Program-made: the position numbers and the translations under genes
The notes under the pieces: generated by a model
Seen by the model: only the letters and a program-made list of their open reading frames with translations
What the model was told of the DNA's origin: nothing
The model's database searches: none
DNA from: Erysipelothrix amsterdamensis
GTDB lineage: Bacteria > Bacillota_I > Bacilli_A > Erysipelotrichales > Erysipelotrichaceae
Length of the DNA stretch: 64,000 bases
Assembly: GCF_940143175.1 (NCBI RefSeq)
Contig: NZ_OW659496.1
Coordinates: 1,736,001-1,800,000 of the forward strand
Direction: 5' to 3'
In this document: positions 4,364 to 47,136 of the stretch, piece after piece
How the letters are laid out: the number at the start of each line of letters is the position of its first letter
Numbering within the stretch: position 1 is the first letter of the stretch

Positions 4364-5284
4364 AAGATCTTGTATATAGTGAAATGCATTTTGCGCCGCA
4401 ATTGCTCCATCACTTGTTGCTGTAACAATTTGACGTAAATGTTTTTGAATAACATCCCCTGCTCCAAAAATACCTGGAATTGCAGTTTCAAGTTGGTTAT
4501 TAACGATCAAATAACCTTCGTTATCGAGAACATTTAAATCTTTTAAGAACCCTGTTGCTGGAATCGCTCCAATATAAGGGAAGACGCCATCTGTATCAAT
4601 TACAAGTGGCTCTCCAGTTTCAACATGTTCAAACTTCATACCTGTTAACTTCCCATCGTTATCGATGTAGTCCACTGGAATATGTTTTTTAATGATATTA
4701 ATTTTTTCGTTATTAAATACTTGGCGTTGCGCTGAATCATCACCACGGAACACATCTCTTCGAATCACAAGATTAACTTCATTGGCAAACTGTGTTAAAT
4801 AGACAGCCTCTTCAAGTGCGGAGTTTCCTCCACCAATAACAACTACTTTTTTATCTCTAAAGAATGCTCCATCACACACAGCACAATAAGATAGACCATG
4901 ACCCAAGAGTGCATCATCTTTTTCAAATCCTAATGTACGTTCGTTTGTCCCTGTTGCCACAATCACAACATGGGCACGGTATTCTGAACCATCTTCAGTT
5001 TTGATTACTTTAAATTCCCCTTCATCAACAATGCCATTCACATTCCCATAAAGGTATTCTGTACCATAAGCGGTTGAGTGTTCAAACATCTTCATTGATA
5101 AATCAACACCCGCAATATTATCCACACCTGGATAATTTTGGACCAAGTCCGTTTTAATCATTTTTCCACCGGGAGCTTCCGATTCCAACATTGCTGTTTT
5201 CAAGCCTGCACGTCCTGCATAAACGGCTGCTGTTAAACCTGCTGGACCCGCTCCAATAATGATTACATCATAGTTATTGTCCAT
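4349..5284 (-). CDS. trxB: Thioredoxin reductase (NADPH)
   Basis: A 311-residue flavoprotein that transfers electrons from NADPH through FAD to thioredoxin. The FAD-binding GAGPAGLTAAVYAGRAG lies at residues 11-27, the redox pair CAVC at residues 134-137, and the NADPH-binding VIGGGNSALEEA follows. The C-terminal FAD motif GIFGAGDV is also present. Length and motif order match low-molecular-weight bacterial TrxB. The start has a strong AAGGAGGA site, placed inside the end of the lgt-ppaX gene, which it overlaps by 22 bases. It is therefore downstream of lgt-ppaX and probably translated by coupling. Confidence 0.97.
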   Translation of the reverse strand: MDNNYDVIIIGAGPAGLTAAVYAGRAGLKTAMLESEAPGGKMIKTDLVQNYPGVDNIAGVDLSMKMFEHSTAYGTEYLYGNVNGIVDEGEFKVIKTEDGSEYRAHVVIVATGTNERTLGFEKDDALLGHGLSYCAVCDGAFFRDKKVVVIGGGNSALEEAVYLTQFANEVNLVIRRDVFRGDDSAQRQVFNNEKINIIKKHIPVDYIDNDGKLTGMKFEHVETGEPLVIDTDGVFPYIGAIPATGFLKDLNVLDNEGYLIVNNQLETAIPGIFGAGDVIQKHLRQIVTATSDGAIAAQNAFHYIQDLKSKA

Positions 5285-6723
5285 TCGTGATCCTCCTTCA
5301 ATATTTCTTTGATTTCCATTAAATCCGAAATCATACGATTCGGTTTACTTTCTTCTAAATCCTTCTCACGTATTTTATCAAATACATATCCGATAGTAAA
5401 CGAACCTGCCCGCTGTCCAGCGAGAATATCTGAAGCAGTATCTCCAACATATATTAATTGTCCACGATCTGCATTCATCAATTCAAGTGCCTTATCGATG
5501 CCTGCTGGATCGGGTTTAACCGGTTCAAATAAATCACAGCCTAATACGACTTCAAAAAGTTCGGGTTTAATTCCTGTAACTTTCATTCCGAGTTCAAGGG
5601 TTGATGTGATTTTGTTTGAAACAATACCCATTCGATATCCTTCATTTTTTAAATCTTCTAATAGCTCTATGGCGTGTTCCATAGGAACAACATAGGTTTC
5701 ATGTAATTCATGATTAATTCGTCGGTACTCTTGAATAATGGCGTCGATTTCTTCTTCTTCAAAGTATTTACTAAACGTATCGTGAAGTGTCGGTCCGAGG
5801 AATGTTTTCATTTCTTGTTCTTCCAGTTGGTATTCGGGTTTGTATATTTCGAACACGCGACGGAACGTTTCTAGAATACATGATTGGGTATTGGCGATGG
5901 TTCCATCAAAATCGAATAAGATAATCGGTTTTCGACGTTCCAAGTATTTCTTAAAGCAGCCCATATATCCCGCAACACCAACAATTACAAATATAATTGA
6001 AATAAATTGCGCAACGCGAATCGGTCCAAACATCAGACTGTCTGATCTAAACCCTTCAATAATGAAACGTGTTGCACCATACCACATCATATATGCGAAG
6101 GTTAAATCACCACGTTTAATTTTACTTAATCGTTTAAGTACAAAAACAATAAGAATCCACCCTATAATGTTTGCGACACTTTCATAGAAAAATGTAGGTT
6201 GACGGAAAGCACCATCAATAAACATCATGTCTTTAAACCACATAGGGAAATGATTATAGAAGCTTTCTTGGACGACACGTCCATAGGCTTCTTTATTCAT
6301 AAAATTACCCCAGCGCCCAATTGCTTGAGCGAGTAATATATTTGGAATAATTAAATCAGCCCACTGTATAAAATTAAGACGACGGCGTTTGGTAAACCAG
6401 TAACCGAAAGCGACCCCCGCAATCAAGCCTCCTTGAATTGCAAGACCACCTTCATGAATCGCGAAGATACGTAACGGTTGAGCAAGGTATGTTTTAAATT
6501 CAAAAAATAAAACATACCAAATACGCGCGCCTAGAAAACCGGCGATGAGCGAACCCATAAATAAATCTTCAATATCGTCTTTCTTATAACCCACCTTTAG
6601 TAAGTTACGTTGACTTATATAATATGCAAGAAATGCACCCGTCATAATCAAAATTGCATACCACGCAATGCTTACAGGGCCAATCTGCACGAATGTTTGA
6701 GTATTTGGAAAAAACTTAATCAT
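5263..6723 (-). CDS. lgt: Lgt prolipoprotein diacylglyceryl transferase fused to a PpaX-like HAD phosphatase
   Basis: One open frame of 486 residues encodes two enzymes. Residues 1 to ~258 are a complete Lgt: several membrane helices, the EGGLAIQGGLIAG stretch, the signature GRWGNFMNKEAYG and the RFIIEGFRSD motif. Lgt moves diacylglyceryl onto the lipobox cysteine of prolipoproteins. Residues ~265-486 are a HAD hydrolase with DFDGT (about 271-275), the KPDP motif and VGDTASDI; GPTLHDTF and the overall plan resemble Bacillus PpaX pyrophosphatase. In Bacillus these are separate adjacent genes after hprK. I chose the ATG at 6723 (AAGGAG seven bases upstream), overlapping hprK by 8 bases; an ATG at 6729 is too close to that site. 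The HAD part should face the cytoplasm after the last helix. The PPi activity is inferred. Confidence 0.93.
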   Translation of the reverse strand: MIKFFPNTQTFVQIGPVSIAWYAILIMTGAFLAYYISQRNLLKVGYKKDDIEDLFMGSLIAGFLGARIWYVLFFEFKTYLAQPLRIFAIHEGGLAIQGGLIAGVAFGYWFTKRRRLNFIQWADLIIPNILLAQAIGRWGNFMNKEAYGRVVQESFYNHFPMWFKDMMFIDGAFRQPTFFYESVANIIGWILIVFVLKRLSKIKRGDLTFAYMMWYGATRFIIEGFRSDSLMFGPIRVAQFISIIFVIVGVAGYMGCFKKYLERRKPIILFDFDGTIANTQSCILETFRRVFEIYKPEYQLEEQEMKTFLGPTLHDTFSKYFEEEEIDAIIQEYRRINHELHETYVVPMEHAIELLEDLKNEGYRMGIVSNKITSTLELGMKVTGIKPELFEVVLGCDLFEPVKPDPAGIDKALELMNADRGQLIYVGDTASDILAGQRAGSFTIGYVFDKIREKDLEESKPNRMISDLMEIKEILKEDHEWTITMM

Positions 6724-7669
6724 CAACATGCTCCTTTGCTTGACGTTTAATAAAATCCATTACGCGCTCGTCAAAAATCTCTGCGCTATTAATTCCTCGT
6801 TGCTTAAGCATATGATCACGCACTGCTGATTCAACGAGCACAGCCATATTACGACCCTCTTTAACAGGGAACACCAAATGCGGAATTTGTAATCCTAATG
6901 CTTCATAGGGTAACTGTTCTTCGATTCCCGCTCTTAAATATTGCTGATTATCATCCCATTTTGTAAACTCAATTACAAAATTTATTTCTTCTTGTTCAAG
7001 ATAGGATCGTACACCAAACATCTGACTTACATCAATGATTCCAATTCCACGAATTTCAAGCATGCTCCGTAGTAACTCGGGTGCAGTCCCAATTATTTTA
7101 TCTTTAACACGGGTAATATCAACACGATCATCGGCGATCAATGCATGACCACGCAATACCAGTTCAAGTGCTACCTCACTTTTACCCATGCCACTTTCAC
7201 CAATAATAAGTACGCCTTTACCAAAAACGTTCATTAATACACCGTGAACATTCCCTGTAGGGGCCAATACTTCATCCAAGAACGTAACGATTTCCACCAT
7301 GATATCGGAACTTGGTCGTTCTGTAACAAACACTGGAAAGTTCTTTTGATTCGCTACTTTACAAAGTGTTGGTGGACATGGGTTTCCACCTGTAATCAAA
7401 GCAAATGGTGTTTCTTCGTTAAGTATTGTACCAAAGCGTTCTTCTTGCTCTGATTCATCAAGTGTTTTGATAAATGATGATTCTTTATTACCGATAATAA
7501 CAACACGCTTCGGTTCTGCATGGGCATAGAACCCTGTTAATTCAAGACCTGGTCTATTTGTATTTGGGAGCGTAATTCGTCTTCTTAATGATTCACGATC
7601 ACCTGCTACTTGTTCGAACCCGAAATGGTCAACAAGGGTCTTAACACTACACGATACTCTTTCTTCCAT
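6716..7669 (-). CDS. hprK: HPr(Ser) kinase/phosphorylase
   Basis: A 317-residue bifunctional enzyme that phosphorylates HPr on Ser46 with ATP or PPi and reverses the reaction by phosphorolysis, setting carbon catabolite control. The C-terminal kinase domain shows the Walker A motif GESGMGKSE near residue 153 and the family signature around LEIRGIGIIDVSQMFG. The N-terminal domain is of normal length. The partner HPr is encoded at 46870-47136 in this window with Ser46 intact. Three bases separate it from uvrA, and it overlaps lgt-ppaX by 8 bases. Phosphorolysis makes PPi, which fits the PpaX-like domain next door. Confidence 0.97.
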   Translation of the reverse strand: MEERVSCSVKTLVDHFGFEQVAGDRESLRRRITLPNTNRPGLELTGFYAHAEPKRVVIIGNKESSFIKTLDESEQEERFGTILNEETPFALITGGNPCPPTLCKVANQKNFPVFVTERPSSDIMVEIVTFLDEVLAPTGNVHGVLMNVFGKGVLIIGESGMGKSEVALELVLRGHALIADDRVDITRVKDKIIGTAPELLRSMLEIRGIGIIDVSQMFGVRSYLEQEEINFVIEFTKWDDNQQYLRAGIEEQLPYEALGLQIPHLVFPVKEGRNMAVLVESAVRDHMLKQRGINSAEIFDERVMDFIKRQAKEHVDD

Positions 7670-7672
7670 AAA

Positions 7673-10498
7673 CTACCCCTTTTCTAATACCCCTTTGAGA
7701 TAATGTCCTGTATAACTATTTTCAACTTGAGCGATGTCTTCAGGTGTACCACAGGCAACAAGCGTACCGCCGCCTTCGCCACCTTCTGGACCTAAATCAA
7801 TCACATAGTCTGCATTTTTAATAACATCTAGGTTATGTTCAATAACAACAACGGTATCACCATTTTCCACAATACGTTGTAATACACCAGTTAGTTTTTC
7901 CACATCGTAGCTGTGTAAACCTGTTGTAGGTTCATCTAAAACAAACATAGTCTTACCCGTTGATGGTCTTTGGAGTTCACTTGCAAGTTTAACACGTTGT
8001 GCTTCTCCACCTGATAATGTGGTTGCTGATTGACCCAATTTGATGTATCCAAGCCCAACATCTTGTAACGTTTCAAGACCCTTACGAATTTTTGAAATTG
8101 GCGCAAAGAACTCAGTTGCTTGATCAATACTCATATCAAGAATATCAAAAATTGTTTTTTCTTTATAATGTACTTGAAGTGTTTCATCGTTATATCGTTT
8201 ACCGTCGCATTCACTACATTTCACAAATACATCTGGTAAAAAGTGCATTGATATCCGCTTCACACCATCACCCTTACACATTTCACAGCGGCCTCCCGCC
8301 ACATTAAACGAAAATCGACCTTTATCGTATCCACGCATTTTCGCTTCAGGCGTTTTCGCAAACAAATCACGAATATCATCAAATACTCCCGTATATGTTG
8401 CGGGGTTTGAACGTGGTGTCCGTCCGATTGGATTTTGATCAATCGTAATTAATTTATCGATATTTTCAAGACCTTTAATTTTCTTATGCTTACCTGGTTT
8501 CACACGCTGTTTTCCAAGTGCATGATATACTGTCTTACTTAAAACTTCATTTACAAGCGATGACTTACCACTGCCACTTACACCCGTAACTGCAATGAAT
8601 GTACCAAGTGGAAACTTAACATTGATTCCTTTGAGGTTATTTTCTTCTGCACCCATAATTTCAATTTTCTTTTTATTACCTTTACGGCGTTTTTTAGGTG
8701 TAGGTATTCTTCGTTTTCCACTGAGATACTGACCCGTAATGGAATCTTCGTTTTCTAAAATAGACGCAAGGGGTCCGTTTGCAATAACTTCTCCACCTAA
8801 AGCACCCGCACCCGGACCAATATCCACAATCCAGTCTGCTGCTTCCATTGTTTCCTCATCGTGTTCAACAACGATAAGTGTATTTCCAAGATCACGCATG
8901 TTTTTTAAAGTTTCGATAAGCCGTGCATTATCACGCTGATGCAGTCCGATGGATGGTTCATCTAAAACATAGAGAACCCCGGTCAGACGCGAACCAATTT
9001 GCGTAGCAAGTCGAATTCTTTGCGACTCGCCTCCGGAAAGACTTCCAGCGATACGGTCCAAAGTTAAATATTCAAGCCCAACATCTTTTAGGAATGTAAG
9101 ACGAGAGACAATTTCTTTAATCACCAGTTCCGCGATATTCGCCTTCATTTCGTCGAGTTCTAGACGATCCATGAAGTGAAGTGCATCTCCAATGGATTGT
9201 TCCGTAAATTGACTGATGTTTAATTCACCGACACGCACACTTAAAGCTTCTTGATTGAGACGGGCACCATGACACTCAGAACACACTGCTTCACCCATAA
9301 ATGATCCATACCATTCACGTGATGATGAAGATGTTGTATCACGATGACGACGTTCAATAAGACTTACAACCCCTTCAATGGGTTCATTACGATGAAAACT
9401 ATTACCAGAACGAGACTCGATAACATATTTAACCGGAACAATACTTCCATAAAGTAAAATATCCATTTGCTTTTTCGTAAGTTTACTAATTGGTTTATCC
9501 ACATCTACTTTTGCGAATTGTATAAGATGTTCAAAAGTCTGCCATTCAATGTTTTGAGAATTAACGATGTTTTTATAGTAGCGAATTCCGCCCTCTGCAA
9601 TTGATAAACTTGGGTCTGGTATTAAAAATTCAAGGTCCACTGATTGGGTCATTCCTAAACCATTACAGTTATGGCATGCTCCCATGGGTGAATTAAAGGA
9701 AAAAAGACGAGGTTCAATGGATGCGATACTAAATCCACATTCAGGACAGGCAAAATTACTTGAAAACACCATGTTTTCTTCACCATTCTTCACAAGAACA
9801 ACGCCATCACTCAGTTTCAGCGCTGTCTCTAACGAATCACTGAGTCGGTAACGACTGTCTTCTTTTTTCACAATACGGTCAATCACAACTTCGATATCAT
9901 GGCGATTATTTTTCTCAAGTGTCACTTCTTCATCAAGCATCACTAAAGCACCATCGATATACGTACGTACATAACCTTCTTTTCGAAGACTATCCAATAA
10001 CTCTCGGTGCTCTCCCTTTTGTGCCTTCACAACAGGTGCCAAGATTTCTAAACGCGTTTTATCTTCAAGCAACATAATACGATCAACCATTTGTTTGATC
10101 GTTTGTGATGTGATTTCAACATTATGGATTGGGCAATAAGGAATACCCACCCGAGCATACAAAAGACGCAAGTAATCATAAATCTCTGTTACAGTTCCTA
10201 CTGTAGAACGGGGATTATTACTTGTCGTTTTTTGATCAATTGCGATGGATGGAGAAAGCCCCTCAATTAATTCAACATCGGGCTTTTCCATATTACCTAA
10301 GAACTGGCGTGCGTATGAACTAAGCGATTCAACATAACGGCGTTGACCTTCAGCATAAATCGTATCGAACGCTAAACTCGTTTTACCAGAACCGGACAAA
10401 CCAGTCATAATTACAAGTTTATCTCTAGGAATTTCAAGGCTTATATTTTTTAGATTATTTTCTTTTGCACCTTTAATGATAATTTTATTGTTTTCCAT
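7673..10498 (-). CDS. uvrA: UvrA excinuclease ABC subunit A
   Basis: A 941-residue DNA-damage recognition ATPase of nucleotide excision repair. Two ABC domains are visible, with Walker A GLSGSGKTS near the N-terminus and GVSGSGKSS in the second half, each paired with a LSGGE signature. Two zinc-binding regions of the CxxC type (CPECG...CHNC and CEMC...CSEC) are present. The start at the ATG at 10498 is preferred because AGGTGA lies five bases upstream; an in-frame GTG three codons earlier lies within that site. It is the same run as hprK and is separated from uvrB by the ANT(6)-like gene. Confidence 0.98.
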   Translation of the reverse strand: MENNKIIIKGAKENNLKNISLEIPRDKLVIMTGLSGSGKTSLAFDTIYAEGQRRYVESLSSYARQFLGNMEKPDVELIEGLSPSIAIDQKTTSNNPRSTVGTVTEIYDYLRLLYARVGIPYCPIHNVEITSQTIKQMVDRIMLLEDKTRLEILAPVVKAQKGEHRELLDSLRKEGYVRTYIDGALVMLDEEVTLEKNNRHDIEVVIDRIVKKEDSRYRLSDSLETALKLSDGVVLVKNGEENMVFSSNFACPECGFSIASIEPRLFSFNSPMGACHNCNGLGMTQSVDLEFLIPDPSLSIAEGGIRYYKNIVNSQNIEWQTFEHLIQFAKVDVDKPISKLTKKQMDILLYGSIVPVKYVIESRSGNSFHRNEPIEGVVSLIERRHRDTTSSSSREWYGSFMGEAVCSECHGARLNQEALSVRVGELNISQFTEQSIGDALHFMDRLELDEMKANIAELVIKEIVSRLTFLKDVGLEYLTLDRIAGSLSGGESQRIRLATQIGSRLTGVLYVLDEPSIGLHQRDNARLIETLKNMRDLGNTLIVVEHDEETMEAADWIVDIGPGAGALGGEVIANGPLASILENEDSITGQYLSGKRRIPTPKKRRKGNKKKIEIMGAEENNLKGINVKFPLGTFIAVTGVSGSGKSSLVNEVLSKTVYHALGKQRVKPGKHKKIKGLENIDKLITIDQNPIGRTPRSNPATYTGVFDDIRDLFAKTPEAKMRGYDKGRFSFNVAGGRCEMCKGDGVKRISMHFLPDVFVKCSECDGKRYNDETLQVHYKEKTIFDILDMSIDQATEFFAPISKIRKGLETLQDVGLGYIKLGQSATTLSGGEAQRVKLASELQRPSTGKTMFVLDEPTTGLHSYDVEKLTGVLQRIVENGDTVVVIEHNLDVIKNADYVIDLGPEGGEGGGTLVACGTPEDIAQVENSYTGHYLKGVLEKG

Positions 10499-10552
10499 AT
10501 CTCTCACCTACTGAACAAATTATAACATGTTTCTTGTTTCCGCAATACCGCT

Positions 10553-46869: not shown

Positions 46870-47136
46870 TTAAGCAATTACTTTTTGTGCTTTTAGTACT
46901 TCTTCAATTGTAGCGATTGCATCATCTTGATCTTCGCCTTCAGCAGAAATAACGATTTCTGACTGAGTTGGAATTCCTAATGACATAACGCCCATGATTG
47001 ACTTCATGTTTACAGCTTTACCTTTGTAGCTGATTTTGATTTCGCTCTTGAATTTGCTTGCTGCATTAACTGCTACGGTTGCAGGACGTGCGTGCAATCC
47101 AACAGGATCAATAACTGTTACTGTAATCTCTTTCAT
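46870..47136 (-). CDS. ptsH: HPr phosphocarrier protein
   Basis: An 88-residue HPr of the sugar phosphotransferase system. His15 (GLHARP) takes the phosphate from enzyme I, and Ser46 ([11 protein letters not shown]) is the HprK target, both intact. It is not followed by ptsI, so HPr is made from a separate unit, closed by a strong terminator. The regulatory partner HprK is at 6716-7669. The start has AGGAGG upstream. Confidence 0.97.

What the first reader, a model, noticed from the sequence alone, without database searches (positions are those of the whole stretch)
5263..6723. Lgt fused to a PpaX-like pyrophosphatase, right after hprK
In Bacillus hprK, lgt and ppaX are separate adjacent genes. 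Here a single frame joins Lgt (about 258 residues with the GRWGNFMNKEAYG signature) to a HAD domain with DFDGT, KPDP and VGDTASDI. The fusion would tether a PPi-removing enzyme to the membrane next to the HprK product whose phosphorolysis makes PPi. It suggests a physical link between lipoprotein maturation and carbon control, or simply a gene-order fusion fixed in this lineage.
Basis: partly seen in the sequence, partly recalled or inferred. Interest (0 to 1): 0.75.

Follow-up and report, generated by a model that had tools for sequence, protein, structure and literature searches.

The report
Lipoprotein enzyme fused to a pyrophosphatase
In the bacterium Erysipelothrix and most of its family, the membrane enzyme that puts lipid on lipoproteins is permanently joined to a pyrophosphate-removing-type enzyme; relatives show that the second half really belongs with the neighbouring sugar-control kinase HprK, sometimes keeping a dead copy of the first half as a membrane anchor and once joining HprK directly.

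Summary
The fusion is real: one 488-aa minus-strand frame (5263-6729) joins a complete Lgt to a PpaX-type HAD phosphatase, between hprK and trxB. It is not an assembly error. All 10 sampled genomes of the genus (Erysipelothrix) and 47 of 58 genera of the family carry it end to end. Separate adjacent lgt and ppaX genes (hprK-lgt-ppaX-trxB) appear to be the older state. Lgt-PpaX fusions elsewhere in the class are not one clade (AU test p=1.7e-5 and 5e-60), so fusion probably happened repeatedly.

Relatives act as natural experiments. In 32 genomes of 4 genera the Lgt half has lost its catalytic motif but is kept as a membrane domain under purifying selection, with PpaX intact and, wherever searched, a normal lgt elsewhere. 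In 25 genomes of one genus PpaX is free but still touches hprK. In 3 genomes PpaX is fused directly to HprK. In 4 genomes (3 genera) the HAD half decayed and Lgt stayed intact.

So PpaX follows hprK, not Lgt. I read the fusion as two enzymes sharing a membrane anchor, most likely for local pyrophosphate removal. A functional link between lipoprotein maturation and carbon control is not supported. Pyrophosphatase activity is inferred, not shown. I found no earlier description.

The parts
5263..6729 (-). Lgt::PpaX fusion gene, 488 aa plus stop
   Evidence: conserved end to end in 47 of 58 family genera
5944..6729 (-). Lgt half (residues 1-262), catalytic-network residues present
   Evidence: PF01790 231.8 bits, TIGR00544 over cut-off; PDB 5AZB match E=6e-27; residues
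6280..6318 (-). Lgt signature GRWGNFMNKEAYG (residues 138-150)
   Evidence: sequence; R139, N142, E147, G150 invariant in fusions; deleted or changed in anchors
5266..5943 (-). PpaX-type HAD half (residues 263-488), cytoplasmic by Lgt topology
   Evidence: PF13419 157.1 bits; best NCBIfam NF009804 170 bits; model matches HAD phosphatases
5899..5913 (-). HAD motif I DFDGT (D273, D275, T277)
   Evidence: invariant in full fusions and anchors
5506..5517 (-). HAD motif III KPDP (K405)
   Evidence: invariant in full fusions and anchors
5425..5448 (-). HAD motif IV VGDTASDI (G429, D430, D434)
   Evidence: conserved
6716..7669 (-). hprK, HPr kinase/phosphorylase, immediately upstream, 14-base overlap
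   Evidence: TIGR00679 367 bits
4349..5284 (-). trxB, immediately downstream, 22-base overlap; its ribosome binding site and start (AAGGAGGATCACGAATGG, 5281-5298) encode the fusion's conserved C-terminal KEDHEW tail
7673..10507 (-). uvrA, upstream gene of the conserved cluster
46870..47133 (-). ptsH (HPr) with His15 (GLHARPA) and Ser46 ([11 protein letters not shown]) sites, the substrate of HprK

Best explanation
The gene encodes one membrane protein made of two ordinary enzymes. The N-terminal half is a working seven-helix Lgt. The C-terminal half is a PpaX-type HAD phosphatase held in the cytoplasm against the membrane by a linker of about ten residues. It arose by in-frame joining of lgt and ppaX, which lay next to each other in the older cluster hprK-lgt-ppaX-trxB, in an ancestor of Erysipelotrichaceae. 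Each half does its own job: Lgt diacylglycerylates prolipoproteins on the outer face, and the HAD half most likely hydrolyses pyrophosphate made when HprK dephosphorylates P-Ser-HPr. The covalent tie to Lgt is a membrane anchor, tolerated or mildly useful, not a regulatory link. Shown by sequence: the fusion, its residues, its age, its polyphyly, the independent loss of either half, the loyalty of PpaX to hprK, and direct HprK::PpaX fusions. Inferred: the PPi substrate, the location of the protein and any benefit of tethering.
For: Synteny uvrA-hprK-lgt-ppaX-trxB with separate genes in several other families of the class, and separate hprK, lgt and ppaX genes in Bacillaceae and Listeria. One PpaX clade for the family (100/99), with anchor, free and HprK-fused states nested inside Lgt-fused ones. 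Catalytic residues of both halves kept in full fusions. dN/dS 0.02-0.09 (Lgt half) and 0.02-0.17 (HAD half) in full fusions; dead Lgt anchors 0.05-0.23. Most anchors keep five to seven hydrophobic segments and a basic loop before the HAD half. All 41 searched genomes of the altered genera have a canonical Lgt, which lies outside the fused frame in every anchor, free-PpaX and HprK-fused genome searched. PpaX touches hprK in 25 of 25 freed cases. HprK::PpaX in L273, L283, L284, with Pfam Hpr_kinase_N, Hpr_kinase_C and HAD_2 in the two scanned. HPr with Ser46 and HprK are both in this genome. HprK/P phosphorolysis yields PPi (PMC2937029). Lgt has been used as an artificial C-terminal enzyme anchor in E. 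coli (PMC9893748).
Against: PPi hydrolysis was not tested, and the PpaX score is below the curated cut-off (170 versus 218). The genome also has a protein with the DHHA2 domain of family II pyrophosphatases in a 554-aa frame, so PPi removal probably does not depend on this protein. In family f8 a PpaX-like HAD persists without HPr or HprK, and four genomes keep HprK but lost the HAD half, so the HprK link is not obligate. Freed PpaX shows that the anchor is dispensable.
Confidence: 0.6

Rival explanations
1. The fusion is a neutral by-product of overlapping, translationally coupled genes: the stop between lgt and ppaX was lost, nothing was gained, and it persists because breaking it is awkward.
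For: Tightly overlapping genes on both sides; repeated fusions in one gene order; freed PpaX in 25 genomes; each half dispensable from the other.
Against: The dead Lgt half is kept at a constant 448-aa frame in many species with dN/dS 0.05-0.23 instead of drifting or being trimmed; full fusion kept in 47 of 58 genera.
Confidence: 0.3
2. The HAD half is another small-molecule phosphatase (for example phosphoglycolate or repair phosphatase) whose position near hprK is only inherited gene order.
For: HAD phosphatases are promiscuous (general knowledge); score below the PpaX cut-off; PpaX-like HAD kept without HprK/HPr in family f8; nearest solved folds are annotated phosphoglycolate phosphatases and other HADs.
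Against: PpaX model scores twice the Pgp model; PpaX stays with hprK while lgt leaves and trxB is no longer adjacent, and is fused to HprK.
Confidence: 0.2
3. The HAD half serves Lgt itself, by making phosphatidylglycerol at the membrane or recycling glycerol-1-phosphate released by Lgt.
For: Covalent joining to Lgt, probably more than once.
Against: When a second Lgt of another type takes over, the HAD half stays at hprK and does not follow Lgt; when the HAD half is lost Lgt goes on; the Lgt active site faces outside (PMC4728403) while the C-terminus is cytoplasmic (PMC9893748); the HAD half is a capped PpaX type suited to small soluble substrates.
Confidence: 0.05
4. Assembly or annotation artefact.
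For: None found.
Against: Same frame in 47 of 58 genera and 10 of 10 genomes of the genus, including single-contig genomes.
Confidence: 0.01

Closest known systems
Lgt, phosphatidylglycerol:prolipoprotein diacylglyceryl transferase (PF01790, E. coli 5AZB)
   Same: Full-length domain, signature motif and catalytic-network residues conserved; best structural match of the model.
   Different: Carries a C-terminal phosphatase; position of E. coli H103 is Gln99 in the window and in about half of the relatives.
Bacillus-type PpaX (NF009804), a standalone gene in the hprK region
   Same: Best family model, same gene neighbourhood, all HAD motifs; about 35% identity to the Bacillus safensis copy.
   Different: Fused behind a membrane enzyme; scores below the curated cut-off.
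hprK-lgt gene clusters of Bacillales, Lactobacillales and Mollicutes (PMC2405797)
   Same: Same gene order, with uvrA upstream and trxB downstream.
   Different: That survey reports HPrK as a single polypeptide except in Fusobacterium nucleatum; HprK::PpaX and Lgt::PpaX are not described in the passages read.
Engineered Lgt membrane scaffold in E. coli (PMC9893748)
   Same: Enzymes fused to the Lgt C-terminus are held at the inner membrane.
   Different: Artificial; here it occurs naturally, and in 32 genomes the Lgt half has lost its catalytic residues.

Membership tests
Lgt (PF01790 / TIGR00544) | Profile score over curated cut-off | tested here: met
   231.8 bits (cut-off 24.9) and 215.7 bits (cut-off 118.9)
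Lgt (PF01790 / TIGR00544) | Signature motif and catalytic-network residues (R143, N146, E151, G154, Y235, R239, E243, R246 of E. coli) | tested here: met
   R139, N142, E147, G150, Y217, R221, E225, R228 present, invariant in fusions (reference residues from PMC4728403)
Lgt (PF01790 / TIGR00544) | HGGL motif His (E. coli H103) | tested here: not met
   Gln99 here; His or Gln in full fusions of the family, so a family-internal variant and not by itself evidence of lost function
Lgt (PF01790 / TIGR00544) | Diacylglyceryl transfer activity | not testable with these tools
   It is the only lgt found in the genome, which suggests that it works
PpaX (NF009804) | Curated equivalog cut-off 218 bits | tested here: not met
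   170 bits; unfused f2 relative L105 reaches 227.7
PpaX (NF009804) | Best match among HAD families, with HAD catalytic residues | tested here: met
   170 versus 83 bits for the next family; D273, D275, T277, K405, D430, D434 present
PpaX (NF009804) | Orthology to operonic PpaX of Bacillus and relatives | tested here: inconclusive
   Same gene position and one clade within the family (100/99); clade with Bacillus PpaX against paralogous HADs not cleanly resolved because of long branches
PpaX (NF009804) | Pyrophosphate hydrolysis | not testable with these tools
   needs a bench assay
HprK/P-PPi pathway | HprK and an HPr with Ser46 in the same genome | tested here: met
   hprK 6716-7669; HPr with [11 protein letters not shown] at about 46870-47133

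The most novel reading that the evidence does not exclude
Selection repeatedly fixes PpaX in place close to HprK and the membrane: Lgt was recruited as its anchor several times, in some genera Lgt then died as an enzyme and survives only as a dedicated membrane anchor, and in one genus PpaX was joined directly to HprK, giving a single enzyme that would release pyrophosphate at one active site and destroy it at the other.
Probability: 0.35. Interest if true: 0.7.

Novelty: new variant of a known kind. Interest (0 to 1): 0.55.

Why it matters
It gives a natural series (separate genes, active fusion, dead-enzyme anchor, freed enzyme, fusion to HprK) for asking whether pyrophosphate removal is spatially coupled to HPr dephosphorylation. 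It also supplies a natural counterpart of an engineered Lgt membrane scaffold. A practical point: most anchor frames still score over the Pfam LGT cut-off although they lack the catalytic residues, and would be counted as a second lgt.

Tried and rejected
Assembly error: rejected. Single clade of all Lgt-PpaX fusions: rejected by AU tests on both halves. My early reading that f2 genus g71 was fused: withdrawn, the genes are separate and adjacent. Fusion in Listeria, Lysinibacillus and other Bacillales suggested by long tblastn hits: withdrawn, separate genes. HAD half acting for Lgt: disfavoured. Internal start giving a free HAD domain: the only candidate (M257) is not conserved. HprK::PpaX elsewhere in the class: none among 395 genomes at E<=1e-118, but no known positive was in that sample, so this shows little. 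Literature searches for Lgt-HAD or HprK-PpaX fusions found nothing, and the library lacks most subscription journals. The original paper on PPi-producing HPr dephosphorylation (Mijakovic 2002 PNAS, cited in PMC2937029) was not read.

Full report
Observation. Window 5263-6729 (minus) is one uninterrupted frame of 488 aa. Residues 12-254 match LGT (231.8 bits) and 270-447 match HAD_2 (157.1 bits). The Lgt half passes TIGR00544. The HAD half is closest to PpaX NF009804, 170 bits against a cut-off of 218, with phosphoglycolate phosphatase next at 83. The gene overlaps hprK by 14 bases and trxB by 22. The conserved C-terminal tail (KEDHEW) is encoded by the ribosome binding site and start of trxB, which may explain why this tail survives even where the HAD half has decayed.

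Distribution. The genome (G000, 1.9 Mb, one contig) has a single lgt, this one. All 10 sampled genomes of the genus (this one included) have the fusion. The genus is Erysipelothrix: contig G146:C12 (58,405 bases) of a congener matches the named record of E. aquatica of the same length. End-to-end fusion is present in 47 of 58 genera of the family, including Amedibacillus dolichus and a Solobacterium MAG. In the sister family f2 the genes are separate, as they are in Bacillaceae, Listeria and Paenibacillaceae. Lgt-PpaX fusions also occur in families f11, f21 (with Anaeroplasma bactoclasticum) and f8. The tree of each half needs 5 or 6 changes between fused and separate, and one common clade is rejected (p=1.7e-5 for HAD, 5e-60 for Lgt). 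Counts of changes cannot tell gain from loss; that separate genes are the older state rests on their wide spread in one gene order and is inferred.

Natural experiments inside the family. (a) Dead Lgt half: 32 genomes of 4 genera keep the joint frame but lack the E147/G150 block and most of the other residues. Pfam still recognises LGT in most of those tested (45-89 bits; not detected in G003). A canonical Lgt, of another type (GRIGCFLAGCCYG) in those read, lies elsewhere in every such genome searched. By a simple hydropathy count the dead half keeps five to seven hydrophobic segments (the same crude method finds only four in the window's Lgt half, so the count is rough); the frame is often exactly 448 aa, and dN/dS is 0.05-0.23. 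In full fusions the Lgt half is usually more constrained than the HAD half; in anchors the order is reversed. dS is high in many pairs, so the ratios are approximate. (b) Freed PpaX: 25 genomes of genus g32 have a PpaX frame, nearly all 212-221 aa, touching or overlapping hprK; G004 of another genus has one too. (c) HprK::PpaX: three genomes (L273, L283, L284; 537-539 aa) carry HprK followed by an intact HAD half; Pfam sees Hpr_kinase_N, Hpr_kinase_C and HAD_2 in the two scanned, and the three form one clade with 100/100 support. Two of the three are nearly identical. (d) Dead HAD half: G037, G075, G051 and G013 keep every tested Lgt residue but only a remnant of about 100 aa without HAD motifs. 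They keep hprK.

Reading. The two halves are lost independently, so no obligate link between lipoprotein maturation and carbon control exists. What stays together is PpaX and hprK. HprK/P dephosphorylates P-Ser-HPr by phosphorolysis and makes PPi, which it can also use as phosphate donor (PMC2937029); that PpaX removes this PPi in Bacillus is from my own knowledge of the field. HPr with Ser46 and HprK are both present here. The Lgt active site faces outside (PMC4728403) and its C-terminus is cytoplasmic (PMC9893748), so the HAD half should sit on the inner membrane face. The predicted model (mean pLDDT 86.8, 12 sequences) matches Lgt 5AZB and HAD phosphatases including a Bacteroides pyrophosphatase.

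Limits. PPi activity, a benefit of tethering, and intactness of the protein in vivo are not shown. A protein with the DHHA2 domain of family II pyrophosphatases is encoded too. In family f8 PpaX-like HADs persist in four genomes without HprK and HPr, so PpaX may have a wider role. Several key relatives are metagenome assemblies or fragmented drafts. I found no earlier description, but the paper library is partial.

Noticed in passing
L273, L283, L284: HprK fused directly to a PpaX-type HAD phosphatase in three genomes of one Erysipelotrichaceae genus.
   Followed up: yes
window residue 99 of the fusion (6433-6435): The position of essential His103 of E. coli Lgt is Gln here and His or Gln across full fusions; E. 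coli H103Q does not complement (PMC4728403).
   Followed up: partly
L098, L100, L101, L102, L249: Family f8 Lgts carry a 150-180 aa N-terminal membrane extension (some also a C-terminal one) in genomes lacking HprK and HPr.
   Followed up: partly
G016, G056, G123: Three same-family genomes lack hprK; G016 and G056 lack HPr too.
   Followed up: no
window 3450 and 5263-5284: rapZ/yvcK and fusion/trxB stops and starts overlap, suggesting translational coupling along the cluster.
   Followed up: no
L063, L078, L079, L265-L268, L274, L279, L281: In genus g32 trxB is no longer directly downstream; rapZ-yvcK-whiA-like genes follow instead.
   Followed up: no
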